A stretch of DNA of 64,000 nt. Source: Dysidea avara (lineage: Eukaryota; Porifera; Demospongiae; Dictyoceratida; Dysideidae). Each line of letters starts with the position of its first letter. Position 1 is the stretch's first letter. The translations under genes and the position numbers were made by a program. The notes beneath the pieces were generated by a model, which saw only the letters and a program-made list of their open reading frames with translations, was not told the origin of the DNA and searched no databases. This document shows, one piece after another, positions 23,493 to 60,330 of this stretch. The stretch covers positions 23,360,004-23,424,003 of the forward strand of contig NC_089279.1 in the NCBI RefSeq assembly GCF_963678975.1, in the 5' to 3' direction.

Positions 23493-24570
23493 ATGGCAAA
23501 TCTAGCTGGAAAATTACCCATGGATGTGTTAAATGCTTTGCCGAAAGTCTCTAATTTTGAAGCAGCGGCTGAATTTTCTCAAGCAGAGAACGCGAGAGAG
23601 AACATGAACGCTAAATCCGAGGCTAAATCTGGAGAACGAACAGTAGAACAAAAACTCTTCTTTTGGGACAGCATTGTTTTTTACCTCGCCTCCGCCATTT
23701 TGGGATTAAGTGTCTCTAACATTGTAGTCGACTTTCTGAGACCAGAACCAAACACCGTCACGTGTTTTACTCCATCCGATTATACCATTAATCAAGCTAA
23801 TTATGTCAATAACTTCTGCAACAGTTTTCTACCGTTCACAGAAAATTTTTCACTCAGTCTGGTAGCCCATGGAGTTCTCTTACTTGTTCCACAATATCTA
23901 TGGAAGGCTTACTTCAGTGCTAGAATAGATTTCTTCTTTTCCCATGCAGCAAAGCTGGAGACACTACGTGAAAGAGAAACTGGTGAATACCCTCATAGAA
24001 ACTTCAATGTTGTGGATTACATGCACAGAGAATTTCATGAGAGAAGAGATATGTTAGCAGGATACTTTTTAAAATTGGCAATACAGCTCTTTGTTGTTGT
24101 GTTAGCTTTGACTAGTAGCAATGTACTATTCCTAAACTTCACCATTGAGTTTGATTGTTTTCATCGTGAGGCTGCCAATTCATCACGTACAATGCGGGTA
24201 ATATGCACGTACCCTAAGCTTCAGTTTGTTTCTATTATTAGAGGACTTGACTACGCTTTTTTAGGATTAGCTTTTCTGACAATAGTATATGGATTTTTGT
24301 GGTGTCTGCTACGGAGTCATCCAGAACTGGGGCACAAAGATATTTCATTATTCTGTTATGATTCATGCATTAATTCAAAGTACTACCAGGCTAAAAGTTG
24401 GTATCAACTTAAAAATGACTTGCATTTCTTACTTGTCTCACTGTTTGCTACTAATGCTGGTTTGGGAAGAGTGTTCAAAAGTGTACAAATTGCTAATGAT
24501 ATTTCACAAAGACTGAGCTCTCACCTGGAGTCATTGGATAATTATGATAGCATGAAACATCCTAAAAGAG
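23493..24570 (+). CDS. unit A exon 1 (all four TM segments)
   Basis: Encodes residues 1-359 plus one base. The donor is GAG|GTATGT. An in-frame extension left to 23334 lacks an ATG-type start shared with the paralogs and is not used. The segment from TM1 through HREFHERRD and the segment SWY.LKNDLHF to the end are almost identical in DNA to unit C. The TM3-loop-TM4 part between them is strongly different. Confidence 0.8.
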
Positions 24571-27500
24571 GTATGTAGCTACTATATACTTATATCTAAT
24601 TATGTATATTAACCAACACATTTCTAACTATATTCAAAATTAATCCTAGCTTGTAATGTGTGAAAAGGCATGCTGTATAACATTGATGTAGAAGGAATTC
24701 CATATCCTGAGCCATGTGACTCCTTAGCAGTGGTGTGGCTACTATATTACTAAAATGTGCTTGGTTTTAAAGTATATAGTGTCCCTGGTTTTTGAGAAAG
24801 AAAATGGTATTGTTGAAACCTACATAATGATACTGCTATTTTTGGAGGTTATAGCAAACCGGCTCTTCCTACCTGAGTCTCATTTGCTGTAAAACTTCTT
24901 CCAAGCACAAACAATATTTGTATGTATATTAGGGCTGAAATGATCACAGACTTTTAGCATTTGCTAAAGTTAACAATTGGGTACTCACTGATATGTGACT
25001 GGATTTTGGAAAAATGATTCAAATTGCACATGAGAAGTTTCTAGCTCATTGACAAGCCATTTGACTTTTCATCACAAGAGATGTATTGACAGTAGCTGCA
25101 TGCAATGTTTCCTGCTAAATATGATAGAAATTCTGTGCAGTTGGATGAGCAAAGTAGTAGTATCATGAGTGTGCCCAAAAGAGATGGACTTTAGAATGGA
25201 GTCAGACCACGACTGAAATCCAGACTCAAGATTTCAGGGTTATGCTGGCTTCTTAGTGACTGATGTGCATGCAGTCAAATCAACAAGAAAACATTTGGCC
25301 AGCTATTCACCAGCACTTCATGTCAAGCCAGGTCCTTCACAAGGCCAGCAAAGGCCATTTAAGCATGCCACATCACCTAGAAAAGACACCTCTTAAGAAC
25401 AGTCTAAAGTAATGCTGAGGGTCAAAGCCAACAAATATTATGGTAGCATAGCTATCCACTGGTGGTGTAAATTTGAGTTTAGCTGATGTGCGATTTGGAT
25501 CAGTGTCATAATCTGGTCACATAGTATTACCTTTATATTCAAAATTTGTCAGCAGTTGAGTTTGCACTCACATCTGTTGCATTTAGAACCCCGATTAGAA
25601 TATCTCAATCTAAGGCTGAAATATTATATTCCCAGCTAGCCCCTTTTGCTATGTACTACACCTATTGCAACAATATACAGAAGTTCACAGCCATGTGCTC
25701 AATATATCTCATGATAATAGTTTTGTGTATAACAGAAACTTGTAATACCATACCTGTACATCCTAAAACTGATTTGGCACATGCATGGCTATATCTACAG
25801 TTAATTTTTATCTATTAATATTTTGTAATCACCTTATAGAAGCTGATATGAAGAAAAATTGTAAAAATATCTTCAAAGAAGAGGTATATTAATCATGTGA
25901 TTATGTTTTATGATTGCTTAATTAGAATTTGTTGTTAAAAGATTTTAAGACATAAACTTAATCATTAATCCTGCATCACCATTTTTCTTACCTCATCAAG
26001 AATTTTTTGCACCACTGGTAGCTAAGGGAGGCCAATTAGCACCTTTTATAGTTGGTATATCTTGCTAGAGCAGTCTAAGAAAATTATATTTTGAGTCATT
26101 TTAGCTAGCTATGTAGTTAGTGAAAAATAAAATAAAAATCCACCCTCCCGTACTGCTATTTGAGTACAGGAGGATGAGAAACTAATAATTAAGTTTATGA
26201 GACCTAATGGGTATATATAATGGGTATTTAAGCTACCATCAATTAAACATTAATTCTTACTAACAAAGACTTCAGCTTACCACAATTAAAATGTAGATAT
26301 TTATATATGTGGTGACATAATTACAGTTTATAGGTAGCATTTACCATAGCATTTGTATTTTTGCTTTTTCAACTTACAGCAATGCTAGAGGCAACTCATT
26401 CAAGATATTTAAATCCTAGATACTGTAACTCAAGATGTAGGAGTTCATGCTTTCAGTCAGAATATTACTAGTACCGCAGAGTCTGGTTGTTAGGTGCATA
26501 CACCTAATAAAAGTTCGTAAAAAAAATTGTAATTAACATTTAGACTATGGTATGGCTCATTTACAGGTTTGCTAAATCACTTAGTCACATGACATGCTCC
26601 TCATTTAGTCACCTACACATGTTCATTTAGTAACCCGCCCTCAAGCAATTTTGTACATGATAAATAATTATAATACAAAAGGCACACTGCAGTACTTGAT
26701 AATACTGTAATACTCTTCTTCTCCGTGTTCCACAAATAATTCTGGACAAATACAGCAGATTTCACGTGCGTTCGAATCTTCGTATTCTGTATTGTGCACG
26801 TGCCTTCACTTTTAAAGCCTGGCACGTGCACAATACAGGCTACGCAAAATTCGAACACAAAAGAAATCTGCTGTAGTAGACTAAACGGCGTATGTACTGT
26901 AGCTCTAGCCGATACTTTGATTATCGGTCGAATAATAATTTTTGTGTGCACTGTAAGGACTTCAGGAAGAAACCGTTCCGTTGTTCTACATTGCTCTTTC
27001 ACCCCACACTCATGCTCTGGCTATAAAGGTACATACTTTAAACCATAGTCTAAATAAGTTAGACACTGTGACCAACGGGAACTAAGCGATTTAGTAACCC
27101 CTCTGGCCCTTAGTAGTGCCCTTGCTGCGCTTGGGATGCTACAGCCTTGGGCCATCAGGATTACTAAATCGCTTAGTTCCCTTGATCTTGGTGTCTAACT
27201 ATTATATAGTTGTTAAGTGTATGCACCTAATAAATATATCATGTCGTGAATATGGATTCACTCTCTTGGGGTGGTATGAATTACAGTCATTACAGGTACC
27301 AATATTTTGAGTCCAGTTATTGTGCACTGAATCCTTCATGTGGAGCATAGACTACTAGCTACAGAAGACTGCTTTGCTTGGTAATTAAGTATAGTACAGG
27401 CACATATTTTGGCTTTGTACTTCATGAAACTTTGCACTATACACTATTAGCAAACCTCTAGCATTTCTTCTCTAGTATAGCTTTGTCTCATGTTGGAGCT

Positions 27501-30500
27501 TTGTGTTCGTCCACATACACTTATCACCTAAGTATGGGAAATGGGTATGCACGTCACTTAACAGGTAATATGCACTTAATGTATACGTGCAACCAGACTC
27601 TACGGTATTGGAATAAGCTGCGTATTACGTGGTCACAGCAATCATACTATGTCAGGTTAGGAGACAGTTTGATAGTACATATGCATTATTTTGTAACGCG
27701 TGCAATATTTTATTAGCTACATACATTATGTACTATCAGACACACAGTAGTGTGCGGTGTAGCCCAAGTAGCCGCCATATCACACCAGTGTATTATTTAC
27801 AGGAAGAATAATAACCCAATTTCCCTTTATGAAGCCAGACAATTTTTGCTATGGAAATGCCCTCCGCCTTTAGTTGTCCTTAAGCACAATTCACCAGGCC
27901 TTTCCGTCAAACTTAAAGTTCTTTATTTTTCCCCTTCATCATTTGCGCACTTACCAAAGCTGCCAGAAATACTAACATGTTATCCAATAGCCTTGAAATT
28001 TGGCATGCTGAGTGGAATTTTAAATTTGCATCTTGGTACAAAATTTGATTTGAGTCAATGAATAGTTGCATAATTATTAATAATTATTGAAAAGTTGAGA
28101 AAAGTAACACCAATACATAGTCATGCTTACAGGATAAATTATTTAAGGGAAGAATATGAAGATCAATATGTGGATAGGTTAATTATTGAACATCAAGACT
28201 TTTGTGGCTTGAAAGAATGCAATCACATGATCAAGATTTGCTAACAAGAACAATTACTTGCCACATGAGCTGAAAATCAGTGTACGTACAGGGGCGGATC
28301 CAGACTTATGGAAAGGGAGGGTAAAAATGAACTGAGGCACTACATTGTCTGGTTTGGTAAGGTGAGACCAAAAAAAGGTCACAGCTAGCTGACAATAGCT
28401 GCCCACCTCACCAAATATGCAGTCATACCTGATAAAGTGAATAAAAATCCTTACATAGCTCACTACACACTGCTCTAATATTGTGACTGCTTTATTAGAG
28501 TGACTGCTGTATTAGAGTATCTCGATCTTGGTATACTAAAAAATTTGGAGGGAGGTCAAGAGCCCCCTTTGACCCCTCTGTATCCACCCCTGTGTACATA
28601 TATGTGCAGTATATGTAGATAGATAGATTGGTTTAAATAGTTGGATTTAAAGCTTTTGAGGTATAATGTGAAAACCAACTACATGTAGCAAGTGCGAGAT
28701 TGAATAGTGCGGTCACCCTAATAGAGCAGTCAGCTAAGAAGTAAATGTTCAGCTAAAGAGTTAAGCTACAATCCAGTCACCCTGTAGAAACTTCAGCTAT
28801 GTTATAAGTAACCTTCTAGAGGTTATGTATACAAGTTGAGCTACCACAAAGACGTTTATCACAGACTAACTGCTGCATGTATAAATATATACAGCCTTTA
28901 TGCTCTGCAAAGTATATAAAGAAATTTCTACTAATTTAGTTGCTCATTATGAAGCCAAAACTAACTGTTTGCATTGAAATAAAGATTTTGGGAGTGATGT
29001 TACTGCTTATGCAGTCTTGGTTTGATGTACAACGTGTTTCTCACTTCTCAAGAGAGCAAAATTATCACTTATACGTATTATGGCTTAGCAATTTTAAACA
29101 CTATTTCAGTTACTTAGCTTTTACAGCTTTTTAGAAAATGAGATCGATCCTATCAAAAAATTAAAGTTAAGGTAGTACTACACATGTGGGAGTTTTTGTT
29201 AGTCATGTTCACATTCATTTAAAATTTGATTTGAAGCTATGTACCTAACTAATAGTAAAGTAAGTCTCAATGATTGCTAAGGTCATGGTCTCATTAACAA
29301 GGCCACCTCTTTATCATAGCCATGCATAGTTTTGTTCCACAGGTAAGATTAACGATAAGTTTCACTGTTGTATGGTCAGTTTTCCTGTGATTATTGTGTA
29401 CTCATTGTATATATATATACTGTATCTACTGTATATAGCCATTTGGAAGAGCCATGCTTGAGATCTGCGAAGAAATCTATCAAGAGCAGAAAGAAAAACT
29501 TGCTGTTACTACAATGGGAGCAATGGATATTAAAATGGGAGCAATGAATATTGGATGTGGCTACCACTCTTCTATGTTTGCCATAGCTAGATGGCAGCAT
29601 CAGGTTTAATATGTACATGCAAGCAACTATCATACAGTATGGTAGAACTGTATTAGGGATCATGTAGTTTTGGACTTTCTTGCCCAAAAATATAACCCTA
29701 AAACCAGCCTCAAATTTCCTTCATAACAGCTTGGCAGTATTGGTTAGGCATAGCCAAGCCTAAAAATGCCCTCAGAGTGACCCCAAACCCTTCCAACAAG
29801 TTTCTATGGAAATTTAAAAAAAAAACTATTTAACTGAATTTTCTACTGACTAACTAACTGATGCCTTCAGCCAAGTATAACTCGACAATGGGCTATGGGC
29901 TTGATTTTTTCACTGTTTGACGTCACTTCATCCTGAGATGTGCCTTTTTGCCAACCACAGTATGTACAATGTATGTATCATGGACCTACCTTTGTCCTCC
30001 TTTGTGTTCCAGTTCTTTTCACTGACAACACAAGGTGTCGATTTGCGATAAAGTGATATGGCTTCCCTCTCCATGGCTGTGTCATGCTTTTCGCCTGCAT
30101 TTTCCATAGTGACTGAATTCATTGCAGAGAAATTTCTTGCACTGATCTTCATTTGTAACGCTGTGTAACAAGTGGAGCATAGCTACAAACAAAGTGTAAT
30201 AGCCACCTCACTTTTCAGTGCGTAATTGATTATTGGGGCACACATTCAGATGCAAAATTATTTTATGGAATGCCTGGATTAAAAAAGTAAACAAACAAGT
30301 AGAAGGAAAAATTAGGAATTTTTAAGCTGGATTAGGAATCAAAGAACAAATTGGCAGGGAAACAAGGGAACAGCATAAAAAGTTGTGAAACAAGGGAGGT
30401 TGCCTATACCTGCAGATATACTAGTGGAAATGTAATCCCTAATTCAGTCTATAGGGATTACATTTCCTCTAGTATATCTGCAGGTACAGGTAACCTCCCT

Positions 30501-33500
30501 TGTTTCTCAACTTTTTAGCTGTTCCCTTGTTTCCCTGCATTTTTGGTCTTTGATCCCTAATCCAGCTTAAAACTCATAATTTTTCCTTCTAATTGTATTA
30601 AGCTGTGTATATAGTCAATTTGTAACCATCCAGGAGGTGATTACACAATGCTTATAGGCCACTGCAAATAAATTCTCTGTTTCCCATCCACCACCCACGT
30701 CTGTTGATTATTAGCAGTAAAAGTTTCGTTAATTTTGTAAAGTGTTATCTCATGTATCTGTTTGCTGTCAAAGCCACATTTGTGTTGTGTGCCTGCTGCT
30801 TAATGGATGAAGGTACAAACATAAGCACATACATTTATGCAGTTTGCTATGCCTGTGCTCAGACAAAGATTGTCGTAAGAGAACTGCCCATTTGTGACTG
30901 TCTCTGGGAAAACCGGTCTTATCGCCCATTTAAAAGTATCGAGAAACGTCGGTTTTAAATATTCTGTGTGTTGTAGCTGGCCAATGGTGGTAGCTACGCA
31001 TACCAAATTTTCACACGTTTCACAACAATTTCTTACCTTCCTGATCATCCACTGAAGAAGTAGTCAACAGCTAAGTTTCCCGCCATTTTAGATAGTTTTT
31101 AAACCGAGGTTGTCTGTATCAGGCGAGCTCCAAAGAAGTGTGGGAGGCGGGGGCCCTGGAAGGCGGGCAAGATGGTGTTCAAAATTTGAAAAGAGACGTG
31201 CTGGGATGAATTAGGCCAAGTTATAGGCCATTCAGGGCTCAGAACTGGCTAAAATGAAAGGAAATTTACAGCACAGGTCATTGTCCAACACCACAGAGCT
31301 GTACAGCCACACACAGCCATCTCCTGGTTGGCCAGGGCTCCATCAAGACCCCAGACCACTCGTACGGCTCGCCACTGTTCTCTAGAAAAGCAGCCAGCAA
31401 AAGCAGACCACTTTACTCTGGTCGACTGTGGCAGTGAAACTTGATAGTGCATTCATTAAGCTTTGTGTTTGTGTGAAAAAATCAAACTTCCTGTCTTGGG
31501 CGATAAGAACGGTTTTCGTAGATCCAGTCACATTTTATAACGGAATGATGAAAATGTACCCCCCACCCGCGTGCAATATGAGGACAGGAAACAGAGAATT
31601 TATTTGTAGTGGTAGGATGTTCTATATATGATAGTTCTCTATCAGCAACACACAAAAGTCATGTCAGTACATATTATACATATATCAAGACTCACGGTAG
31701 TGAGTCGCGCGGCCAAGAAACTACAAAGCGCACGCCCAATTAAAAGACGCGCGGCCACTACTGTGAGTTATTTACGTGTAGGGCCGGTTTTGCAATATTA
31801 GTCCTAAATTACGCAACATCTCTCAATAGATTTGTATTGCGTTACGTGATAAAAAATCTTTAGGAGTCGTTATAGTTTTCTTGCGACCTCGCTAAAATAA
31901 AAAAATAACCATCGCAAAATAAAAAATAGGCGTATTTCACTTTATTTCTCTACCTTATGTTACAACTACTGTCACGTTATACCAGTCAACATAGTCGTGT
32001 TTGTATAGTCCATCTAGCACTGACAGTATCCAATCCTGGTTTGCCTATACGCGTATTTTCTTCAATCAATCTCTAATCCCTACAATAACTTTTAAAGACA
32101 CGACGTGGACACAAACTCTAATGCCTGATAAACAAGTTGTGACAGCGTGCTGAACCGTAAGTTCCCTAGGGATGGCGTTTTAAGCAGAAATCTTTTAAAT
32201 TCCATTTAGTACCACACCCCATGCGAGCGTTTATAAATCGCCAGTTGTCTTATGGTTTGAAGAACAAAATCACTAGCGAAGGTGCTTTAAGCATACTCTT
32301 CAATTCTCTATTTACATGTAATTTTTAATAGATTAACCACAAAGGCCGGTAAGGTCAATACAAAAGGTAACAAGCCTTTAGGGGTTACCACCTCTATGTA
32401 GTATGTACCATGTAGCTTGTGTTGTGGCTTTCATTAAGTATTATGCACACACAAATGGTGCAACAAAATTTTGTAATGGATTGCTCGAATGTGGTTGGTG
32501 GTGTTGTGGCTTGAATGTGGTTCGTGGTTTGCCAGTGACCATGTATGAGTTGGGGTTGGTCCACACAACTTACACAATATTCAAATTTCATGATGGCCAT
32601 GATAATTTCTTGCCATATGGTAAACATACAACAATGTGTAACAACGTTAATTAACATCACATCAAGACTTGACTAAAAATAGTTCCAACAATAGTGATGA
32701 TTTCTTGTATGTCAGCATGACGATACTGAGACCTGTAAAAGAATAAGCAGGCACTGAAGTTAACCTTAAATTAAACACTCATGCAACTGACCTGGAACAT
32801 CGGTCGCAACACCAAAAACACTTGTTTCGATATCTGATGACACAATCTAGCAGGCACTGAATTAAAAGAGAATGTACAAAAAATCAATATGCCGGGCTGT
32901 GTCAATAATAGCATGGATAATCAAAATGAACAAAAATTATATCCCAGGCTAAGTGAATGAATAACATAACTGTTGGGTAAGCATGTTAAACCAGAACATT
33001 AGGACATTAGTCAAACCAGAACATTAGACATTAGTCAAACAAAAGTACGCTATCACAACTTGGTCATAATACAATGTTTGTACCACTGGACTTCACACTG
33101 GTTGCCCAAAAATTGTGCCATTCTGGGACAACAGCATAATATTATGAAACAAATAGTTACTACAACACAGAAGGCTTACTGTTGCACTGTCTACACTGAT
33201 ATACCATAATTTAAAAACATAACAGGTGGGCATTAAATACAATACACTTAATATCTGGGTACTAGGAAAAAATCACTAACATCACAACATGTAAACTGAC
33301 CTGGAAATTAACACCCTTGATGCCCCTACAGTCTACACTGGATACTTGTTCGAACCCATCAACACTATGCCTGATACATCTGAGTAGATTGACCTGCAAA
33401 TTCACATCACTAGTATACAGTGATAATTGATAACTGCAAAAACAACAATTGCAATAATACAATTCTTCTGCACGTCAACTGACCTGAAATTCATGACACT

Positions 33501-36500
33501 CAATACCGAGACCTGTAAAAGAATAAGCAGGCACTGAAGTCAACCTTAAATTAAACACACATGCAAACTGACCTGGAACATCGGTCGCAACACCAAAGAC
33601 ATCTGTTTCGATATCTGACAAAACAATCCAGCAGGCACTGAATTAAAAAGAGAATGTGCAAAAAATCAATATGCCGGGCTGTACCAATAAAGGATGAATA
33701 ATCAAAATGAACTAAAAATATATATCCCATATGCAGGTTAAGTGAGTAACATAACTGTTGGGTAAGCATGTAAACCAGAACATTTGGTCATTAGTCAAAC
33801 AAAAGTACGCTATCACAAACTGGTCACTGATAATTGATAACTACAAAAAGAACAATTGCAATAATACAATTCCTCTGAATGTCAACTGACCTGAAATTCA
33901 TGACACCTGTATCTTTGTTCCTGCATGGTCTCATCTTTGTTCCTGCATGGTCTCAACTTACATATGTACCATGATCACATTCAACTGCTAGTGGATAAAC
34001 CAGTATGACCAGATAGCCTGCAAAAACCAACAAGCAGGTGTTAAATACAATACACATACCTAAAGCCTGGAATATGATATAAGCATTATTCCACACTGAT
34101 ATAGTAATAGATTATAGGATGTTGTGGAACTTGCCTAAACGTGTAAACTTGAACATGAGGACAACCGCATAATCTGGACACTTGGAATTGTCCAATACCT
34201 GATGAACCGCAAGTAGGTACTAATGACATTCACTTCAACATTTTATCCCAGCTGGGTGAATCTCTTGTAACTGAGTAAAAAGGTGTTTATTTTCCACCTG
34301 CAACCAAAGTTCTACATTTCTGTGGTTGGGTGTACATAAACTGACCTGGAAAATCAGTATGCCATAGGGGTATGGAAATGGTTCCTTTCCTTCTGTTGTG
34401 ACATTACTTACAGCTGACTGGTAAATGATCATCGATGTCCCCATGGACCCCAACAATGAGTATACCAACAACTTCACAAGTTGGAATGAATTTCCTTTCA
34501 ACATCTGGTGGACAGGTCCAAAAACCCTATCGCACAAACACGGTGAATCAGTGTGTGGCGATGTGACACGTTGCACAAACTTCACTCCTCGTTTCGTTAG
34601 CATTCAAGACCGGCATATATCATAGAGTCCCTCAGTATTCTTGACTCTTACTTTTTCAAGCGTTGCTCAAGCGATGTAGTTTCTCACGAGGGGCTCGAGT
34701 TTCTCAGTAAAGTCGAGCCGATTAAAGTACGCCTCACCATCCAGTTACATTCTTAAACCATTCAATTTAAAACCACGTATCATGAGTGTCCGCTTAAGGT
34801 AATTAGGGACTTTCCACGAGATTTCCCCTAAATAGATCACGTGTTAGTTGTCAATCTGGTGGATTCTGGTGGTATACATGGTTCAACAATGCGGTAAGTG
34901 TAGTATAAGCTGTCAATGAATAATTGTTTGTACACTACTAAACTAAGTTATTTTTGTGTGATAAGCATGCTTGAGGAAGGGTCTGGGGGACGAGACTAAT
35001 GTTTTGACAGCAGTTGATGGACAGCAGTTGATGATGGCCAGGCAAAGAACTGCGAGAAGAACTACTATGATAGTATGATAGTAGGGAAAAATTCCCACCC
35101 CTATAGCTCTGCCTAGGGGCATTAACTAGCATTATCTACAGCTACTGTATTATGTTGCTGATGTGTACATTCAGGCCAAGAATAAAGGTGAAAGTGGTAG
35201 TAAGGCTCAATCCTATTATTCTGCTGAACAGGCAAGGGAGTCTGGGACTCTGGGGACATGTTCCCTCAGGAAAGTATAAGTACTACAACTTTTTTGTTTT
35301 AATTGCTTCATCAAGTATAAAAATTTCAGTCAAAAGGTGATGATCGAGCTCTGGTCTTATGCACTGGTTGGAGTGGTTGTATCGATACTGCACTGTGACA
35401 TCCTTGAGGGGTTAGTGCTGGCATTATCCATGGCAATACTATTCCATCTCCCCGAGTCTTGATGATTGAGTCCTCCATTCCTTTCTCTGCTGCTCCAATC
35501 CTGAAGTTGTGACCACAGTCAAAAGGTGACGATCGAGGCTCTGGTCTTGCATCTATACTGTACTGCAACACCCTTGAGGGGTTAGTACCGGCATTGTCCA
35601 TCGCAATACTGTTCTATCTCCCATATACAAGTCTTGATGGTTGAGTCCTCTATTCCTTTCTCTGCTGCTCTAATCCTGAAGTTGTGACCAAAATATTAAA
35701 AAATGCATATGGTTATAACATGATAAATGATTATGATGATAACAATTACAAATGTATTTATAGCTGTGTAGCAACTGTGAACTAATTAGGCACTTGCAAG
35801 TTTAATTAGGTGTCTGAAGCATTTAACATGCACAGATATGAGATATATTCATCACGTGCAGGCAGTAAAGATAAATTTACTCTAATAGAACAGTCATACT
35901 ACACCGTAAATTCATACTTCCGAATTTACGGTGTTATGAAACAATCATTATTATGTATGGATTTTACTGACTCTCCAAGATAATATTCTGCATTAATGTT
36001 AATTGCTCATTTCCAAAAAAATTACCTTTTAAACCAAATATAGAGTCTATCACTGACAAAAATTAGTGATATCCACCCCAAAAACACCTTCGCTAAAGGC
36101 GCGCCCAAGAAACTACAAGTACCTGGAACCCAATGTAAAAAAGAAAAAGAAAAATCAGCTTAGCTGAAGTGAAAAGTAACTGGTAACTTAAAGAGCTGAT
36201 ATCTGAAGCGGCCAAGAATATACAATTACTAAACTGAGTTTAATCCATGCAAGAACACCTTGGCTATAAAACAGGTGTATACATGAAAGTAACTGGCAAC
36301 TGAAATGGCTGATATCTGAAGCGGCCAAGAATGAATGGTCATATACAACTAATTCAAAAATTTAACACTGAACCTTTATAATTCAGCTGTGTTCTATATT
36401 CACTCTTGCTGCATCGTAAAGTAATTTCTTTTAACTCTAATTGGCTGGTAATTTGGCCACCTTTTTTTGCTCTATTATACTGACTATTAAAAAAGGCGGC

Positions 36501-42595: not shown

Positions 42596-42660
42596 CACAA
42601 ACCAATCAGTAACTTATAACCATAGCAATAACCAATCAGTAACTTATAACCATAGCAGTA

Positions 42661-46764: not shown

Positions 46765-46873
46765 AGGCTTACTTCAGTGCTAGAATAGATTTCTTCTTTT
46801 CCCATGCAGCAAAGCTGGAGATGTTACTATAACTAAAACTAAAACTAAAATTATTGACGAAATTGACTATGAC

Positions 46874-47732: not shown

Positions 47733-47761
47733 CAAGAGTTTATACACATTATAAACTCTTG
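47733..47761. mobile_element. 29-bp palindromic micro-element with 7-bp TSD
   Basis: Arms CAAGAGTTTATA and TATAAACTCTTG around CACAT, flanked by ATAATAT on both sides (47726-47732, 47762-47768). Unit A has no palindrome at the matching place but a hAT-like MITE a few bases away. Confidence 0.85.
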
Positions 47762-49317: not shown

Positions 49318-49590
49318 AACAAACAAGTAGAAGGAAAAATTAGGAATTTGTAAGCTGGATTAGGATCAAAGAACAAAAACGCAGGGAAACAAGGCAACAG
49401 CTAAAAAGTTGTGAAACAAGGGAGGTTGCCTATACCTGCAGATATACTAGTGGACATGTAACTCTATGGTTATAGACTGAGGAGTAGGGATTAGATGTCC
49501 ACTAGTATATCTGCAGGTATAGGCAACCTCCCTTGTTTCACAACTTTTTAGCTGTTCCTGCTTTTTTGTCCTTTGATCCCTACTTCTACT
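49318..49590. mobile_element. foldback element, unit B copy
   Basis: Same element as 30298-30600: CCTGCAGATATACTAGTGGA on the left arm and TCCACTAGTATATCTGCAGG on the right. The right arm is slightly shortened. Confidence 0.75.
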
Positions 49591-50224
49591 TGTATTAAGC
49601 TGTGTATGTAGTTAATTTGTAACCATCCAGAAGGTGACACAAAATGCTTACAGGCCACTGCAAATAAGCTCTCTGTTTCCCATCCGCCGCCCACGTCTGT
49701 TGACTGTTAGCAGTGAAATGTTTCATTAATTTTCTAAAGTGTTAGCTCATGTATCTGTTTGCTGTCAAAGCCACATTTGTGTTGTGTGCCTGCTGCTTAA
49801 TGGATGAAGGTACAAACATGAGCACATACTTTTATGCAGTTTGCTATGCCTGTGTTCAGACAAAGATTACCATAAATAGCTGCCCATTTTATAACGGAAT
49901 GATGATAATGTACCCCCACCAGTATGCAATATGAGGACAGGAAACAGAGAATTTATTTGTAGTGGTAGGATGTTCTATGATGGTTCTCTACCAGCAACAC
50001 ACACAAAAGTCATGTCAGTACATAATATACATATATACACATGCACGCATGTATGCAAATGGATACCACTTGTGCCTCTTTGGATTTTTGGCATTGCCTG
50101 CAAAATCAGTCTATCATATTCACTTTTATTACGTTTTTCTATTTCCAATTATGTCTTAAGTTAAACACATACCAAAGCTACAACTGTTACATTAGAATAA
50201 TTGTACCTCAGTGACAATATCTAT

Positions 50225-51300
50225 ACTATTCAAACTAAATGCTCTATTATTTTATAACCCAGCTCTGGAATCAAAACTTTGAAAATCACCACAACAAAAT
50301 TTACCATTTCACTACAGTGACTGGTATGTATGTTCTATGAATTGAATAGATAATTTAATTGCAACTTCTTCATTCTTTGTTGAGAACCTTCTAATAAGAT
50401 ACTGCCCATTTATGCTGGTTTTCTGCTTATCATGCCAGCATTATGCTCAACGTGTTCGCCTTTTTGTTATGCCAAAAGTTATGCTGTTACAATAGCTAGC
50501 CTATTGCATTAGTTGACAGACTGGTGTGTCTTTTGCAACAGAATTCAAAACTACTATTATAATCTATGACCATGCATAAAACAAGAATATTATGTGTATC
50601 TAAATGTACACTTCCTATGGCAACTTCCCATACGTTTTGACAGTTTGTACTTAGGGTTGGAGCAACCAATACTGTGAAATCATGATGCTATTCAGTATCT
50701 TATGCAGGATCCTGTACAGAGTTGGTCTGAGAGCTATCATACTGCAACCAGGTAATTCTTTCAGAGATGTTGCTATTGCTTGACTGCTTTATAAGAGTAT
50801 CTCAATTTTTGTACCTGAATTGTTGTCAAAGTGAGAAGCAGCTGCTTGATCAGCTTTTACGTATCTAATTCCACCTAATATTTCTGATTTGGAGGTTTTA
50901 AGTTTGAAGCACTGCAAAACGAGTTTCAGTAAACTCTTGATAATTTTTCTCCCTACTGTACCCTTATTTTGCTTGATTACACGCAGCAAAGAGCCATTTC
51001 CTTACTAACTTTAAAAAATACTGGATATATTAATTATTATGATTACAGCTGTAGTGTTTACTAAATCTCAGCTGGCCTACCTTGCAATACCTTTGTAAAG
51101 AAATGTGCCTTCACAAATCTATCAACAATCTTACAGCTCTGAAAACTCCTAACTATAGCTATTTTACTAGTATTCACACAGCAACAAGGATTCACCACCA
51201 GCAAGCTTACTATTTTGCCAACATTAGAACAGATGCCTATATACAGTACATGAACAGTGTTTTTCCTTGAACTATCAGAGAATGAAATGGCCTATCCCAC
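50225..51300. other. block present only in unit B
   Basis: Unit A joins the two sides directly near 37150. No terminal repeats or gene seen. Contains a motif copy GACTGCTTTATAAGAGTATCTC near 50778. Open frames at 50789-50989 and 51082-51270 are unsupported. Confidence 0.45.
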
Positions 51301-52650
51301 ATATTATGGAATCAACGTCAATCAATTCATTTCATCAAATAAACAGTTAATGTATACCTACTTTAGTAATTATTTGTATTTGTAGTTAGACTGTTTCTGT
51401 AATTGATTGGGACAGATCTACCTGTAGTCCCATGGACAACATCAGCAGTAGCTACATGCTGTCTGCCCAGTATCAAAAATATGTTTTGAAGTCTGTTGCT
51501 ATATAAAGTTAAATCATATGAAAGAATGCAACTTTAAAACAACAATGAATACGACTCGCTTGTCATAAATTATAAATTTTATAGGACAAATATACTTGGA
51601 TTATATGCATTCCTGCATGCTGTTTACAATGCTAGAATAAATTTGGGAATAATAGTTAGTGGAAGTAATTAGGAAATGTATTGGATAAGTTTTAGGATTT
51701 TAATTCTTGAATACACCACTGAAACTGTAAAAGCATTAAACAGTAGAAAAAGGTACTCTAATTGCACAACCATTTACTCTAATAAAGCAGTCAAATTTTA
51801 GTCCATAGCAGTCGCTTACTTTATGAATAACCCTAACAAATATTTGGCACAATTTTCATAAGCAACAAAAAAAATTGCCAGAAAGAATAATTGGAAGATT
51901 TTGAGTACATAGTAAACTTGAGATAAACTGGTAAATGCATTTTAAATAAACAGTTATGTTGCTCATTTGGAAGTGTATATACGTATATTGCCATATGAGT
52001 TGTTATAGAGTATAATATTATAAGTACATACCTCATGAAAGCACACTTCATGTTTACTTCATATAAACTTTCTCCATCATCCTGGATCCTTACTACAGGA
52101 ATCAAAATACTGTATTCACAAGTGAGGAGCATCATGCTTGTCTAATAATAATGAGGATACCTACTAATTTGTTTGGTCTGCCGAAGAAGCACAAGGGTAT
52201 AGTAAGGAATTATTTTCAGCTTTGAAATTCGTAGCTTTAACGTTGAGTTTTGTGGTCCTTTTATGAAAAGACTTGAATTGTAGGGAATTAGTAGTAACCC
52301 ACGTACATGTATTTTTGTTAATGTATTATTGGTAACTTTACTCTTGTATCATATGCTTTGCAATTTCACCATTAAGTACGTTAATTCCTTGTATTGAAGT
52401 GTCAACTGCAAATTTGATGCATAAAATTACGTAGGAGTCATTTGTGTCTATAGCAAAGAGCCAAGCTGTGAAAAGGGGTGTGTCCCCTAACAATCCAGGA
52501 TGAAAAAATATGTGAATTTCACATGGTGGCCAAGAAATGGTTGTGATGGTCAGTTAATGGCAAAAATTTTAATAACTAATTCCGGTGAATTTTTGTTGCC
52601 TTTTTCTTTGCTGTAGGAGATCAAAAGCTGATTATATTACCATTTTTGCT

Positions 52651-52935
52651 TATAAGGCCACATAAACTTAATTATTAGTTTCTCATTCCCACCCGCATGG
52701 CCATTTTTCTTACCTCATCAAGGATTTTTTATACCACTGGTGACTGAGTGCAGCTATCCAGCTCCTTCTAAAGTTACTAGTTAGCACCTTGCTAGAGCAG
52801 TATAAGAAAACTGCATTCTGAGCTAGCTAATTCAGTTATCTAGTGAGTAAAAAATATAATAAAAATCCACTCTCTCGCACTGCTATTTTGAGTACAGGAG
52901 GATGAGAAACTAATAATTAAGTTTATGTGGCCTAA
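52651..52935. mobile_element. 285-bp MITE
   Basis: Inverted ends of about 33 bp: AGGCCACATAAACTTAATTA on the left and TAATTAAGTTTATGTGGCCT on the right, continuing TTAGTTTCTCAT. TA-rich flanks suggest a TA target. A diverged copy is at 25945-26209. Confidence 0.8.
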
Positions 52936-53009
52936 TGATGCAATATTATTTTCTGTATGAAAATTATTTCTCTCCTGCAGGTTGGCTGGCTTTTAACAAA
53001 AATTTCTTG

Positions 53010-53665
53010 TTTATAGCTGAACTCTCGATAGACTGACTTCCAATGTAGCTGAATTCCCTACAGTTGGTAGCTGAACTCCCTATAGGGTGACTTGTTTGTA
53101 GTTGAACTCTCCATCTATAGGTGTAGCTAAACTCTCTACAGAATGTCATGTTTGAGCACTCTACAGGGTTTAGCTGAATTCTCTACACAGTGATTTGAAC
53201 TCTCTACTGGGTTACTTGTTTGTATCTGAACTCTCTACTGGGTCAATTGTTTGTGGCTGAACTCTCTACAGAGTGACTATTACTGAACTCTCAATGGGGT
53301 GATTGTTCTGTGGCTAAACTCTCTGCAGGGTAACTTTTGTAGCTGAGCTCTACAGGTGACTTGTTTGTGGCTGAACTCTCTTCACAGGGTGATGTGTTTG
53401 TTGCTGAAACCTCTACAGGGTGACTTGTTATAGCTGAACTGTCTACTAGGTAACTTGTTTGTGGCTGAGCTCTCACAAAGTTATTTGTTTGTAGCTGAGG
53501 GTGACCTGTTTGTAGCTGACTCTCTACAGGATGACTTTCTTGTAGCTGTACATTCTACTCGGTTTTTGTAGATGAACTCTACAGGTGACTTGTTTGTAGC
53601 TGAAACCCTCTACCAGATGAATGGTTTATTACTGAACTCTCTACAGGGTGACTTGTTTGCAGAAG
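53010..53665. repeat. degenerate minisatellite, unit about 30 bp
   Basis: About twenty imperfect copies of TAGCTGAACTCTCTACAGGG followed by TGACTTGTTTG. Units vary from about 20 to 35 bp. Minus-strand frames through it are repeats, not genes. Confidence 0.85.
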
Positions 53666-56600
53666 CATAGCCAGAACCTGGGTCACCCGGGCATCAATAT
53701 TGAAACACTCAAATAGAACAGTCTAAAATGATGCCTCAGGGAGACAAAGGCAAAAATATTGAATTTCCAGTACTGTATATACAAAGCTGTAAATGTCACC
53801 AAAGGTCAAATCTGTGATGGCACTATATCAAAAATGAATGTTGTTAGGTGTTCAACCAATAAGGAAATTTTCATGCTTTTCTATGATAATGCATCTTTTG
53901 CACTATGCCACTCTACTAATTTTTGGCTCAACTAAATTGCCTGGTATGCGTGGCAAGTAATACATTTTTATTAGGCAGTGGATATTGAATTGAAAGTTGG
54001 TTCAATAATGTACCAGCTATTGAACCAACAGTAAACTGCTTTGCCAGGATGCTTGCTTTACTCGCTCAATCCCTAGCTTGCTTTAAACTCACCAAAAACT
54101 TACCTTTATAATACAACTAGTGTGCTTGATACTAGTCTAAGAGTAGTTTGTGTTAGCAATTTGAAATAAAATTTTCGCTTCAGTAACCACTTCCTTTTTG
54201 CATGGCAACAAAACTCAATCCAGTGTTTCTACAAATGCTTGGCATTTTTTGTTATAACTCCATGATTGTTAGCTCGATTTCTTTCAAACCACAAATAGTT
54301 TGCACTACAATGGTTACTCCATATATAGGCTGATTTTAAAGTTATTTATTTACCCTGTAGTAGTGACAAAAAAATGCTGTTGCATCATTAAAAAATTGTA
54401 CAAACCCCTTGTTATTTATCCGATGTGTACGAAACTTTGACTGTAAATGTGCAGCATTGTATGCTTTTACTGCCATCCAAATTTGAAGTAAATTGACGCG
54501 AGTTATGGCAATTTTTCTAAGTGGAGCGAAAAGATGAAGAAACCATGGTGAAATTTGAAGGCACATATCTTGAGGGAGTTTTCACAGCAAAAATGGTTAA
54601 TTTCTGGTCATTATTGAACTACGTATGGTTGCTTGAAAACATCATTCTCTTGCTTCCTGCAAAATACACACTTGTCTGTCAAGTGTCCGTACTGGGCTGC
54701 ATGACACAGTATGGTATGTCATGATTGTTCTAGTGTAACATAATTTATCTTTTCTATCTAGTTTAGTAGTAAGATTCAAACTTATGCTGGATATAATGGA
54801 CCAAATGATGCCGAAAATCCAGATTTTAAGCTCAGTTTGGTAGTTGTTGGACCGATAGATAGTGATTGTAAAGTTAGCACAGGTTAGTAGTGACTCACTC
54901 ACAGAAAGTGACATTTACCAAATTTGCTTCTAGTTAATCAGATAATTGAAATACACTCTCGATCAAACAAGTATTTTGTGAAGGGTTCAATAATGATTAT
55001 ATTTCAACCACTTGAGGTGGAAGGAAAGGACATTTCCAATAGTTTTGCAAATTGGACACCAGAATCAATAGAGTGAGATAGTCATATTGTGTATAATTTG
55101 TACAAACTGTTGTTCTCCATTAGATACTGGAAATCTAGCAATTCATTAAGCAAGCTTAATGCTTGGCTAGGTCATCACCAGTCTGAGATTGTAGATGATA
55201 ATCACAATTACGATGATGAAGAAGATTCTGATGAAGAGTCTACAATTTCAGTTGATGAACGTAACTCTGATAAAAAGAAAGCTATAACCATAGTCAAATG
55301 TGGAGACCTGAAGTGCAAGTTTGCACTCAAAATTTATGAGTACAAGGGCTATTATGAGAATGTTGAAACTGTACTTTAGACTAACAGGCAATGTAAAGAC
55401 AATTTATTGGTAATTTTTATAGTAATAGGTCTGAAATAAGAAACTGTACTGTTCCCGAGTCCATTGTAGTACACGTTTAATCCTTATTTCAGATAGTTAT
55501 GTATTTTTATTTTAAAAGAATCATTAATAACCAGGCGGTTAAACACTACATTAATTGGTAGGTCATCATTTGCAATCCATGCCATCTACCAATCTGTGGG
55601 CAGAGAAGTAAACTCTGCCCAATCCTGCAACGATGGAATGGTTGCCATCACTCAAGCAGCATTACCGCATTGTACATCAATGGAAATCTTCTGGATTAAA
55701 TATTGTGTAGCTCTATTGTCTCCAGTCTGCTCCAGTCTTCATTATGTGTTATATGGCTAAAACTATGTACTTGAGTATGAAGCAATACAAAGATCAGTAT
55801 ACACATGTTTCATTCTACATGACTCACTGTGCTTACAGAATATATAACAGGTACTCTCATATTTAACTATATTTTCAAATGAGCTAGAATATTTTAAAAG
55901 ACTGCATGCTTTTTTTAATAACTAAACTTTAATGTCTATTGAAGAGTTGTGCTTACAAGGCATAAAAAAGGACTGCTGTAAATACACTGTCTACGCTCTC
56001 AGGTTAACAGTGACATTGATCATTAATGAATAATGAGATAATACATATACATCCTGAAAACCTCGGTCACTGCAACCACAAAGACTGGTTCAGAAATGAG
56101 ACCAGTGTGGGCATGGCAAGGGTGGAAAATACAAAAAAAAAGTATAAGGCTATGACTACATATACATGCATCTGAAATTAATACTACTTACATAAGTACT
56201 AAGTAGGGCGCAGCCACTCCCTGCAATCTATTGCCACAAAAATCCTGCAATCATAATAAATAAATAAAAATGCATATCTTTGAGGCACCATCTAGCATTT
56301 GTCTCAGAGGACTTTATTATGGACAAATCCTTATAAACAAAACGGGCAAGTGTTCGTAACGGAAAATTGATGGTAATGACCCAGCACACTAATCCCAAGG
56401 ATCTCATAATAGTTAGTGATATTTAGCCCGCGATCAAATTCTGATAGTAGCTATTTGATGGCCATGGTAGACGATTTCGTTTTAAATCTTTAATTAAAAG
56501 TAAATGGTTAGAAGTTACCATGTCTACTGTTAAATTGTTGAGTGATTGTAACAGCACAATATCGGGTAACTTGTGTACTGAATAAATATCTGGTGAATAC

Positions 56601-56797
56601 ATATGTGCAGGGGCGCCCGTAAATATCCTTATTTGTTTTTGTTTATTATGTGTTTTATCTTATGTCATTAATTTATTAACGAAAAAAAAAAGTAAATAGA
56701 GTCTATCCTTACGCAAATCACGAGACTAGTTCCAAATAACGCTTGGTTTCATTATTTTAGGGGTGGAGCTGTTGTTCGGTGATACATTTGATCAGTC

Positions 56798-59700
56798 ATG
56801 GCAGCACTTAGTCCACAAGGATTACCCGCGGATCTACCAGGTCCACTGTCAAATATCATAGCACAAGTGTCAAAAATGAATACTGAGACTAAATCAGACT
56901 CGAAATCGGAACAGCCTGCTGCAACCGGACCGGAAAAAACAGTGGAGCAAAAGCTTTTCTTCTGGGACAGCATCCTTTTTTACCTCGCTACCGCCATTTT
57001 GGGATTAAGCGTTTCCAACGTCGTTGTCGACTTTCTGAGGCCAGAACCGAACGCTGTATCGTGTTTTACGCCCTTCAATTACACACGTGGGCAAACAGAT
57101 CATGTCAATAATTTCTGCAACGAGTTTTTACCATTTACAGAAAATTTTTCGCTTGCTCTAGTTACCCATGGAGTTCTCTTACTTATCCCACAGTATTTAT
57201 GGAAGGCTTACTTCAGTGCTAGGATAGATTTCTTCTTTTCCCATGCAGCAAAGCTGGAGACATTACGTGAGAGAGAAACTGGGGAATACCCTCATAGGAA
57301 CTTCAATGTTGTGGACTACATGCATAGAGAATTTCATGAGAGAAGAGATATATTAGCAGGATATGTCATTAAGCTATTATCACAACTTATCATCATCATA
57401 TGCTCACTGGCTATTAGCAATGCTTTGTTTACAAAATTCAGCATCATATTTGATTGCCTTTATTTGGAGGAAACTGATTCAGAGCGTTTAAGGACTAGAT
57501 GTTCATATTCCAAGCTTCGTTTTGTTTCTATTTTAAGATGGATTGACTATGCACTTTTAGGACTATCCATCCTGACAATATTGTATGGACTGTGGTGGTG
57601 TTTGCTACGAAGTCATCCAGAACTTGGACATCAAGATACCTCACGATTCTGCTATGACTCATGTATTAATTCAAAACACTACAAGGCTAAAAGTTGGTAT
57701 CGACTTAAAAATGACTTGCATTTCTTACTTGTCTCACTGTTTGCTACTAATGCTGGTTTGGGAAGAGTGTTCAAAAGTGTACAAATTGCTAATGACATCT
57801 CACATGAGCTTAGTGCACACCTGGAGTCATTGGATAATTTTGATAGCATGAAACATCCTCAAAGAGGTAGGTATAACATTTTGTACCATATAGAAGCTTC
57901 CATGTATGCAGCGGCATATCTACAACAAGGCATATGTAACTATCAGGGCTGAAACTGGGTCAGGTCAATCAGGTTGCATATTTTGTTTAGGTCAACCTCA
58001 TATCCAAGTCTGGCCCACATGTGAAATGAATTAATATAATTATATGAAAGTGTACGTGATACCATGTATGTGCCCTAGTCTAGTTCTCCAGCTGCCTAGC
58101 TTCTATCGTGAGTCATGCCCATTTATCAGGAATGTATGATATTGTCTGTAAACGTATGTGGAGCCATGTCCAGGTATAATTGGTGGTTGAAGTCTGTAAA
58201 TATGCCCGAAGCCACGTCCCTCATAAGAAATATGTTTGCTGTCTTATGAGGAACCACACCTGCTAATCGAGCTTTATTTTTAAAACTTACCTGTATTAGA
58301 GTTTTGCAATCATATAGTTATCTGTTTACTGAATATGCTAGCAGAACACCCAAAGTCTAGCTCTAAACCCGTGCCTCAAGCTCGGTTTTACACTAGTAGG
58401 TCTGACTTGGATTACTATCCACATCTGTGGGTCATCTGGTGGTGACCCAGCCTGATGTATATGTATATAAGTTAGCCAGCTTACTAGCGACTGTGTCCAT
58501 GGGGTTTTGTGAACACTTATTGGCATTGAATAGTGAGGGATCATGGGCTGCATTGATCAATAAAAAATTGAGGACTGAATTTATATGTGTAGCTGACATA
58601 TATGTGTAGCTGACAAGCTATACTGTGTAATTGTCTTTTGATTTTACATTTGTTTGTGTCCTGTTAAACCAAATTAAATGTCTTGTTACTTCAATGCTTC
58701 CATACAAGCATGTGAAACAGAAAGCACGTACATGCTCATGTGTGCATGTGTGTGGTAAATGGGAAAGCAAACTGTTCATGTCTCACACAGTAGGGTGAGT
58801 TTTAGGTATGGAGTTTCGGTGCTCATTTGCACACCTTCATCTGTAATCTGGTGAAATACAAATACCAAATCATTTCAAAATGAATTCAATTAGACGGTGC
58901 ACGTAATTGCTTATTATGTCAGATGATTGCTAGAACAAAAGTATTGCATTTCCAAGGCGATTTCTGTGTGAACGTCACTGGCATGCATTAATTGGCTACC
59001 ACAGTAGAAATGATTTAGTATCTGTATTTCACCAGACCCCTACTTTTTGCAAAGGGGCGGGCGGTGCCAGATTACTGTGAGGCACGCTACAGCCTTTTGT
59101 GAGGTGCTAGACTCATAGATACTTGAATAGTACATAGGTGGGTGAGTTGTGGCCATTTATATAGCAGTGGAAGGTTTTGCTGTTTGCTTATAGGCTATAG
59201 TCAGTTAGTTATCAAGACACACGGTAGTGTGTTGTGCAGCCAAGAAAGTTGATTTGTCACATCGTGCATACATTGACAGGAAGAATGAAAACACAACTTT
59301 TGCACATTAATAGCTACATGGTCCTTTCTCCAAAGCACACCATTTACATTATAGCTGCCTGCCGGGTAGGGAAGGCACACACTAAATACATATGACCAAA
59401 TTCACTGTAGCCATTCCTAAGATATGGGTGGTCAAAGTTTTGGTCTTTTCTTCTTTTAAGGGGCTTACTGGGCCAAATTTTCACACTTTGCAAGAATGTT
59501 ATGCAATGCTAACAAGTAACTCAATTGCCTTGAAAGTTGGCACAGATAAAATAGGTGAATTCACATGCTAAGGTTGCTATGAGTCTGAACAGTATTATTG
59601 ATGCTTATTCGTGTAAAAATGTATAAACTTTTGTCATGGCTATAGGGCAAACCAGGTATGGCAATAACTTTAAAATTGCTGTGTACATTGCTTTGTGTTG

Positions 59701-60330
59701 TATTGTACAGTGTATTTTTGATAGTTTCAAAAGCAAAGGAGTAACAGCTTCACAGTTAAAAGGCAAAAATCAAACCAGTGTAAAATTGCTCTAATAGAGG
59801 AGTCACCACAATGTCAAAAGTTTGTCAGAGTTGGTCAAAAGGTTGGCAGAGTTAGCCTTCACACGTAGCACTCAAATCTTTAACCAATGAGATGCTGCCT
59901 GTCATTATTAAAATTTGTTAGCATTAACATCTTTGCAGCCATTCTTAAATTGGCTACCACCTTTGATTTCACAACTTTTTTTCATCCAGGTTTTTGAAGG
60001 CTGTATATTTTGCTGTTGTTTGGTGGATTTAGGTAGTCAATCAGTAGAAAACATTATGTATGTATGAACAAGTAAATATCCATAGAACTAACTGGAAGCA
60101 GTTTGAGCTGCTCTGAGGGCATGTTTTAGTTTGATTACAACTGCCAAGTTGTCATAAAGAAAAGGTGAGGCTGGGTTTCTTTGGTGGGAAAACATACACC
60201 TTCATGATCCCTACTATGCAGTGCTACCATATAGTGATGTAATAGAGAGATATAATGTTATGTGTATTATCATGATTATGTAGAAGCTGATATGGAGGGA
60301 AACAGTGCCAATATCTTTAAGGAAGAGAGG
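56798..60330 (+). CDS. unit C: four-TM pannexin/innexin/LRRC8-like gene, exons 1-2 (partial)
   Basis: Exon 1 (56798-57866) encodes residues 1-356 plus one base, starting MAALSPQGLPADL, with donor GAG|GTAGGT. TM1 about 58-78, loop cysteines C89 and C107, TM2 117-138 with IPQYLWK, TM3 about 186-208, two cysteines in loop 2 (FDCL and RCSY), TM4 about 248-270. The frame runs on to 57952 only by intron read-through. Exon 2 (60284-60330, acceptor TATGTAG) reads EADMEGNSANIFKEER at the same phase as in unit A. Exons 3-6 are not in the window, which ends 3.7 kb later. Intact so far. By family a subunit of an oligomeric membrane channel; this is inference from topology and motif. Confidence 0.7.
57867..60283 (+). 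other. unit C intron 1
   Basis: About 2.4 kb. Contains a MITE at 58847-59036, the CACACGGTAGTGTGT repeat at 59214-59290, and CTCTAATAGAGGAGTCA near 59790. The GGTTTTA...TTCATGATCCCTACTATGCAG repeat near 60120-60235 is a relative of those at 5.2, 29.7 and 48.8 kb. No other exon seen. Confidence 0.5.
58847..59036. mobile_element. 190-bp MITE
   Basis: Inverted ends of about 30 bp: TCTGGTGAAATACAAATACC on the left and TATCTGTATTTCACCAGA on the right, with AAATCATTTC/GAAATGATTT inside. Non-coding. Confidence 0.65.

What the first reader, a model, noticed from the sequence alone, without database searches (positions are those of the whole stretch)
23493..60330. Tandem family of pannexin/innexin/LRRC8-like channel genes in a probable sponge
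Units A and C encode four TM segments, two cysteines in each extracellular loop (unit A C91/C109 and C222/C238) and (V/I)PQYLWK at the end of TM2. Established knowledge: two cysteines per loop and a TM2 ending P-x-x-[LI]-W-K are innexin/pannexin traits, the segment after TM4 (KNDLHFLLVSLF) resembles LRRC8, and sponges are usually described as lacking innexins and pannexins. Inference: this is a divergent branch of the superfamily, without leucine-rich repeats and with a new tail, kept as a tandem array of at least four units.
Basis: partly seen in the sequence, partly recalled or inferred. Interest (0 to 1): 0.85.

Follow-up and report, generated by a model that had tools for sequence, protein, structure and literature searches.

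The report
Divergent pannexin-like channel genes, possible sponge
Two intact genes here encode distant relatives of the pannexin and innexin proteins that form large pores in animal cell membranes; this would be a surprise if the animal is a sponge, a group said to lack them, but the identity of the animal could not be checked.

Summary
Units A and C are real genes under purifying selection (dN/dS about 0.17). Both proteins pass Pfam's Innexin cut-off (29.3 bits, cut-off 25; human PANX3 scores 29.7). Profile-profile comparison is best with vertebrate pannexins (84%, E 7e-6), far weaker with LRRC8A, INX-6 and connexin. The 19-residue cysteine cassette of loop 1 matches PANX1-3 and INX-6 in length. 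Two AlphaFold models were low-confidence (pLDDT 41.5, 45.9); the 50 Foldseek rows listed for each were all pannexin or LRRC8 chains, but TM-scores were 0.20-0.32, so the 3-D fold is not confirmed. 'At least four units' is not supported: two intact genes, one broken copy, one 69-bp relic. The 3' end was not found. The most likely product is a large-pore channel subunit, probably pannexin-like rather than gap-junctional, as both proteins carry loop N-glycosylation sequons. The host phylum ('sponge') could not be tested, and it decides how important this is.

The parts
23493..24570 (+). Unit A exon 1: divergent pannexin/innexin-family protein; TM1 about 52-81, loop 1 cysteines C91/C109, TM2 about 119-141, TM3 about 188-214, loop 2 cysteines C222/C238, TM4 about 246-274, cytoplasmic tail to KHPKR; donor AG|GTATGT follows
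   Evidence: PF00876 29.3 bits, cut-off 25; dN/dS with unit C 0.17; splice site
25840..25883 (+). Unit A exon 2 (44 nt, continues in phase 1, ends in phase 0): EADMKKNCKNIFKEE; acceptor ...TTATAG, donor GTATAT
   Evidence: 34 of 44 nt shared with unit C exon 2; left flank 42.5% and right flank 40% identical; matching splice phases
45669..46821 (+). Unit B: broken copy, closest to unit C; in-frame stop in loop 1, frame shifts, insertions of about 250 and 433 bp, 3' part missing
   Evidence: tblastn and blastn against units A and C; sequence read
56798..57866 (+). Unit C exon 1: paralogue of A; loop 1 cysteines C89/C107, sequon N94-Y-T in the register of PANX2 N86 and PANX3 N71; donor AG|GTAGGT
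   Evidence: PF00876 29.3 bits; alignment and cassette table; splice site
60284..60330 (+). Unit C exon 2 (47 nt): EADMEGNSANIFKEER; donor GTAACA
1648..1716 (-). Relic of the TM1/loop 1 region (23 residues, 61% identical to unit A)
   Evidence: tblastn E 4e-5; blastn 44 bp, 82%
27509..40230 (.). Non-coding flank upstream of unit B, duplicated as 46951-56627 upstream of unit C (blocks 82-93% identical)
   Evidence: self-comparison; all 36 tblastx matches of 60 residues or more carry stops in at least one copy
46951..56627 (.). Second copy of that flank, upstream of unit C

Best explanation
Units A and C are two working genes for divergent subunits of the pannexin/innexin (PF00876) family. Shown: homology to the family, strong purifying selection, the two-cysteine loops, the pannexin/innexin loop 1 cassette, and two conserved exons. 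Inferred: the subunits assemble as a ring around a wide pore in the plasma membrane that passes ions and small solutes such as ATP, opened and closed through the cytoplasmic loop and tail, which are the most conserved parts between the two paralogues. Inferred more weakly: because unit C has an N-glycosylation sequon at the position of the known PANX2 glycan (N86) and unit A has one inside loop 2 (N229), they act as single-membrane channels like vertebrate pannexins and do not dock into gap junctions. Copy number changed by ordinary tandem duplication and decay: an old A versus B/C split, then a recent B/C duplication with the upstream flank, then breakage of B.
For: Pfam Innexin E 6.6e-7 and 6.3e-7, above the curated cut-off, 30.1 bits for the cores, equal to human PANX3 (29.7); no hit for 4 shuffles and 1 reversal. 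hhalign with PANX1-3: 84.2%, E 7.4e-6, null of 60 column shuffles at most 3.0%; PANX versus INX-6, an accepted kinship, scores 86.7% in the same set-up. Best hits of the A/C profile among 177,635 distinct PDB sequences are three PANX2 constructs (E 0.0089-0.041); PANX2 versus INX-6 gives E 0.016. Foldseek: 50 of 50 listed rows (of 368 and 323 matches with E up to 10) are pannexin or LRRC8 for both models. dN/dS 0.17; residues 139-186 (48 of 48) and 307-338 (32 of 32) identical between A and C. The 19-residue cassette is of equal length in A, C, PANX1-3 and INX-6. Unit C N94 lines up with PANX2 N86, shown to be the only PANX2 N-glycan site (PMC6073767, passages).
Against: Both AlphaFold models are poor (mean pLDDT 41.5 and 45.9; query-normalised TM-scores 0.20-0.32 in the listed rows), so the 3-D fold is not independently confirmed; Foldseek's score includes amino-acid similarity and I ran no control model. 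Single-sequence PDB E-values are marginal (0.014 at best). The seven-row tree groups A/C with LRRC8A, not the pannexins. Pairwise hhalign with PANX1 alone is only 26% and with INX-6 (7.8%) hardly above Cx26 (6.6%). The 3' end of the genes is unknown. No expression data. Sequons do not exclude gap junctions: many non-chordate innexins have them and some of these form functional junctions (PMC8769644, passages). The lower dS in 139-186 (0.31) and 307-338 (0.10) allows partial gene conversion as part of the reason for their identity.
Confidence: 0.72

Rival explanations
1. The proteins form true gap junctions between cells, as invertebrate innexins do.
For: Two cysteines per extracellular loop, PQYLWKA close to INX-6 PRFIWKA, and the same cassette length as INX-6; glycosylation sequons occur in innexins that form junctions (PMC8769644, passages).
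Against: Profile similarity to INX-6 alone is weak (7.8%) against 84% for pannexins; both units carry loop sequons; the literature seen says no gap junctions are reported in sponges (PMC10280926, passages), relevant only if the host is one.
Confidence: 0.2
2. The genes are a branch of the LRRC8 (volume-regulated anion channel) line that lacks or has lost the leucine-rich repeats.
For: A/C join LRRC8A in the small tree (84/92); LRRC8A chains are the next natural proteins after PANX2 in the PDB profile search, though not significant (E 3.4); KNDLHFLL resembles KNDFAFML after TM4; Foldseek lists many LRRC8 chains.
Against: No Pannexin_like (PF12534) hit at E up to 10, where LRRC8A itself scores 494.5 bits; hhalign with LRRC8A 16% against a null maximum of 10.7%; the tree program warns that long branches meet; LRRC8A does not show the 19-residue cassette; no row of LRR motifs downstream.
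Confidence: 0.12
3. The host is an animal with ordinary innexins (for example a cnidarian, mollusc or ctenophore) and these are merely fast-evolving extra paralogues.
For: The host phylum was not established; the BEL/Pao element fits many animal phyla.
Against: Only 29-30 bits on PF00876, where INX-6 scores 272, together with low dN/dS, so no sign of relaxed selection between A and C. This is indirect: it does not show that the host lacks ordinary innexins.
Confidence: 0.35
4. Unrelated four-helix membrane proteins whose similarity to pannexins is chance or convergence.
For: Model confidence and single-sequence E-values are poor.
Against: Pfam and profile-profile comparison agree, controls are clean, and the cassette, cysteines and TM2 motif fall in the right order.
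Confidence: 0.04

Closest known systems
Vertebrate pannexins, PANX2 nearest (also PANX1, PANX3)
   Same: Loop 1 cassette C-[FY]-[TS]-P...C of 19 residues; cysteine pair in loop 2; four TM segments; PxxxW-type end of TM2; sequon position of PANX2 N86 and PANX3 N71 kept in unit C; hhalign 84% with PANX1-3 together
   Different: Longer N-terminus before TM1 (roughly 20 residues more than PANX1, about 10 more than PANX2); loop 1 lacks the stretch that PANX has between the second cysteine and TM2; extra residues after TM4 and inside the following helix
Innexins (C. elegans INX-6; Pfam PF00876)
   Same: PF00876 match above the curated cut-off; same cassette length; PxxxWKA after TM2
   Different: 29-30 bits against 272 for INX-6; pairwise hhalign with INX-6 only 7.8%; shorter loops
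LRRC8A (volume-regulated anion channel)
   Same: Order of helices; LWWxLxRS at the end of TM4 (unit C) and KND[LF]xF after it
   Different: No PF12534 match, no row of LRR motifs found downstream, different loop 1 cysteine pattern
Connexins and CALHM
   Same: Four TM segments with loop cysteines (recalled)
   Different: No Pfam match for either at E up to 10, within HMMER's filters; hhalign with Cx26 6.6%, over 25 residues

Membership tests
Innexin/pannexin family (PF00876) | Curated profile score above the gathering cut-off | tested here: met
   29.3 bits for both, cut-off 25; cores 30.1; PANX3 29.7 for scale
Innexin/pannexin family (PF00876) | Four TM segments, two cysteines in each extracellular loop, 19-residue C...C cassette in loop 1 | tested here: met
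   Cysteines and cassette. TM segments: 3 of 4 pass the hydropathy cut-off; TM2 is seen only as a helix in the low-confidence models
Innexin/pannexin family (PF00876) | Pannexin-like subunit fold in 3-D | tested here: inconclusive
   pLDDT 41.5 and 45.9; the 50 listed Foldseek hits of each model are pannexin or LRRC8, but TM-scores are 0.20-0.32
Innexin/pannexin family (PF00876) | Forms a large-pore channel or gap junction | not testable with these tools
   needs expression and electrophysiology
Pannexin subgroup | Closest to PANX1-3 within the superfamily | tested here: inconclusive
   For: hhalign 84.2% against 16, 7.8 and 6.6% for LRRC8A, INX-6 and Cx26. Against: the seven-row tree joins A/C to LRRC8A
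Pannexin subgroup | N-glycosylation sequon in an extracellular loop | tested here: met
   C: N94; A: N229 in loop 2; others lie at membrane borders. Use of the sites untested
LRRC8 | Pannexin_like TM profile PF12534 | tested here: not met
   no match at E up to 10
LRRC8 | C-terminal leucine-rich repeats | tested here: inconclusive
   an LRR pattern hit 3 isolated places downstream of A or C and 1 upstream of A, 3 of these 4 with or beside stop codons and none in a row of repeats; the 3' exons were not found
Sponge gene | Contig belongs to Porifera | not testable with these tools
   no whole genome held; scans of genome and viral contigs with the A/C alignment and of viral contigs with two retroelement proteins confirmed no relative; a repeated 19-mer gave one place in a Sporocytophaga MAG, which shares only that 24-26 bp with the window, and none in viral contigs

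The most novel reading that the evidence does not exclude
These are the first pannexin/innexin-family genes of a sponge. [quoted passage not shown]
Probability: 0.42. Interest if true: 0.85.

Novelty: new variant of a known kind. Interest (0 to 1): 0.62.

Why it matters
Four papers whose passages I saw state that innexins/pannexins have not been found in sponges (PMC6391747; PMC10280926; PMC8769644; PMC9949713), and a review associates this with simple body plans (PMC9816575, passages). If the host is a sponge, that statement is wrong for at least this lineage and the origin of the family must be redrawn. [quoted passage not shown] If the host is another animal, the genes are still a divergent branch, about as far from pannexins by profile as INX-6 is, of interest mainly to comparison within the family.

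Tried and rejected
Tried without result: search for relatives in GTDB contigs and IMG/VR contigs (98 and 102 pattern matches, 0 confirmed); two retroelement proteins in IMG/VR (5 and 1 pattern matches, 0 confirmed); a 19-mer repeated 18 times in the window scanned in both collections (one exact match, in a Sporocytophaga MAG that shares only 24-26 bp of this repeat with the window; none in IMG/VR); Rfam and tRNA scans (none). Third exon by similarity between the regions downstream of A and C: no pair reached the cut-off of 38, while the reverse-strand control gave two pairs above it (97 and 42, probably shared repeats, not examined), so this search is insensitive as well as negative. Rejected: a fourth intact unit; membership of LRRC8; chance similarity; connexin or CALHM. 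The region shared by 27509-40230 and 46951-56627 was considered as downstream exons and rejected: all 36 tblastx matches of at least 60 residues carry stops in one copy or both. YN00 rates failed for several sub-windows; only its whole-core value is quoted.

Literature: nine searches on the question and one on BEL/Pao. The lists are capped (for example 30 of 234); among the listed titles and abstract openings I saw no report of an innexin or pannexin gene from a sponge. For each paper I saw only the listing or passages found by words, never a whole text. Two sponge genome papers hold none of the words innexin, pannexin or gap junction in their main text (PMC12465263; PMC7385117). The library is open-access only, without bioRxiv preprints.
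Full report
What is there. Unit A opens at 23493 and unit C at 56798, both on the plus strand. Their nucleotide similarity ends at 24577/57873, just after an AG|GTATGT (A) and AG|GTAGGT (C) at homologous positions, so the in-frame stop of A (24576-24578) and the run-on of C (residues 357-384) are probably intron sequence. A second exon follows at 25840-25883 (A) and 60284-60330 (C): 34 of 44 bases identical inside, 42.5% and 40% in the 40-base flanks, with the same entry phase and both leaving in phase 0. The best match of A's exon 2 in 1-23000, 26000-56700 (both strands) and the reverse strand downstream of C is 27 of 44. The conceptually spliced tails read KHPKREADMKKNCKNIFKEE and KHPQREADMEGNSANIFKEER. 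A search for a third exon found none, though its control shows it to be insensitive, so the C-terminus is unknown.

Are they genes? Over 311 codons dN is 0.13 and dS 0.75 (NG86); YN00 gives 0.135/0.576 over 309. Differences fall 61/26/94 on codon positions; a simulation of as many random changes gives 60% amino-acid identity on average (maximum of 500: 65%) and 7.5 stops, against 78% and none observed. Selection is uneven: the cytoplasmic loop (139-186) and the stretch after TM4 (307-338) are identical in all 48 and 32 residues, while TM3 and loop 2 (187-245) keep 27 of 58 and the N-terminus 12 of 44. dS is lower in the identical stretches (0.31, 0.10), so some gene conversion is possible.

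What family? Pfam Innexin is the only family above its cut-off for A and C (29.3 bits each, cut-off 25); C also has a sub-threshold DUF6535 match (E 0.045). Trimmed cores give 30.1 bits; 4 shuffles and 1 reversal give nothing. For scale: PANX1 45.8, PANX2 42.9, PANX3 29.7, INX-6 272.1; LRRC8A has no Innexin hit and scores 494.5 on PF12534. In the PDB, a profile of A and C finds three PANX2 constructs first (E 0.0089 to 0.041), then an engineered haemolysin hybrid (1.3) and LRRC8A (3.4-3.5). These E-values are weak taken alone, but PANX2 against INX-6 gives 0.016 and LRRC8A against pannexins 0.35-0.5. Profile-profile: PANX1-3 together 84.2% (E 7.4e-6), PANX2 alone 82.6%, PANX3 51.4%, PANX1 26.1%, LRRC8A 16.0%, INX-6 7.8%, Cx26 6.6%; null from 60 column shuffles at most 3.0% (PANX), 10.7% (LRRC8A), 1.8% (INX-6). 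INX-6 is above its null but hardly above Cx26, LRRC8A is barely above its null, and Cx26 had no null of its own.

Structure. AlphaFold with the two sequences gave mean pLDDT 41.5 (whole unit A) and 45.9 (core). The predicted order is helix, short strand at the first cysteine, long helix, helix, two strands around the second cysteine pair, helix, tail helices. Foldseek against 350,542 PDB chains listed pannexin or LRRC8 chains in 50 of 50 rows for each model (of 368 and 323 matches with E up to 10), best E 2.5e-5 and 4.9e-5; no innexin is among the listed rows. Query-normalised TM-scores of 0.20-0.32 mean the 3-D arrangement was not reproduced, and part of the score is sequence, so this is supporting evidence and not proof. 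I ran no Foldseek control with another low-confidence model.

Motifs. The loop 1 cassette has 19 residues in A, C, PANX1, PANX2, PANX3 and INX-6 (6 of 7 proteins compared; LRRC8A shows no match to the pattern). Unit C's sequon N94 is five residues after the first cysteine, as are PANX2 N86 and PANX3 N71; unit A has D there but N229 inside loop 2. PANX2 N86 is reported as its only N-glycan site (PMC6073767, passages); that PANX3 uses N71 and PANX1 N255 is recalled. Other sequons (A N118, N215; C N116) sit at membrane borders. A seven-row tree puts A/C with LRRC8A (84/92), with a warning that long branches meet; I give it little weight but it speaks against the pannexin placement.

History of the array. 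The flank 27509-40230 (upstream of B) matches 46951-56627 (upstream of C) in blocks of 82-93% identity, and B matches C at 89-96% in pieces. So B and C with their upstream flanks are a recent tandem duplication, with a LINE lying between 41579 and 45461, and A is the older paralogue. B is broken: stop codon in loop 1, frame shifts, an insertion near the start and another at 46332-46764, and nothing recognisable after about codon 156. A relic of 23 residues lies at 1648-1716 minus. Two intact genes, one broken copy and one relic are less than the 'at least four units' claimed.

How it most likely works. By homology, subunits form a ring with a wide pore, the loop disulfides shape the outer mouth, and the constrained cytoplasmic parts gate it (inference). 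The sequons favour a single-membrane, pannexin-like channel over a docked gap junction (inference; 67% of ctenophore innexins carry loop sequons too, and some innexins with sequons form junctions, PMC8769644, passages). Divergence of TM3 and loop 2 between A and C suggests different partners or permeants (inference).

Host. A BEL/Pao element (Peptidase_A17 157.5 bits, DUF5641 74.4 bits) fits an animal, and BEL/Pao is reported from the sponge Amphimedon (24 elements, PMC3118150, passages), but also from many other phyla. No tool gave the species. The significance of the finding therefore hangs on an untested point, and I score it accordingly.

Noticed in passing
36095-36859: Near-perfect palindrome: nested arms of 248 and 126 nt, both 100% complementary, 21-nt centre. 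Either a recent inverted duplication or an assembly artefact.
   Followed up: no
window, 18 sites from 1191 to 60873: A 19-base repeat TGACTGCTCTATTAGAGTA with up to 3 mismatches occurs 18 times against 0.03 expected; perhaps the end of a high-copy small mobile element, and a possible fingerprint of the host genome.
   Followed up: partly
9228-13915 (+): BEL/Pao LTR retrotransposon: RVT_1, DUF1758, Peptidase_A17, integrase, DUF5641.
   Followed up: partly
41579-45461 (+) and 62190-63660 (-): Two non-LTR retrotransposons; in the first, endonuclease and reverse transcriptase matched Pfam. The second was recognised by eye only from its reading frames.
   Followed up: partly
15462-15977 (-): DDE_3 transposase fragment.
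   Followed up: no
14109-14732 and 17403-18810 (+): Open frames of 207, 227 and 277 residues without any Pfam match at E 0.01; the latter two lie between inverted repeats at 16861-17149 and 19501-19633, perhaps an undescribed mobile element.
   Followed up: no
53196-53659: Minisatellite of about 16 copies of a 31-bp unit.
   Followed up: no
46332-46764: The insertion in unit B starts CAGTGGCGGAT and ends ATCCGTCACTG, with AGGCT on both sides, as a small DNA transposon with a target-site duplication would (read by eye).
   Followed up: no
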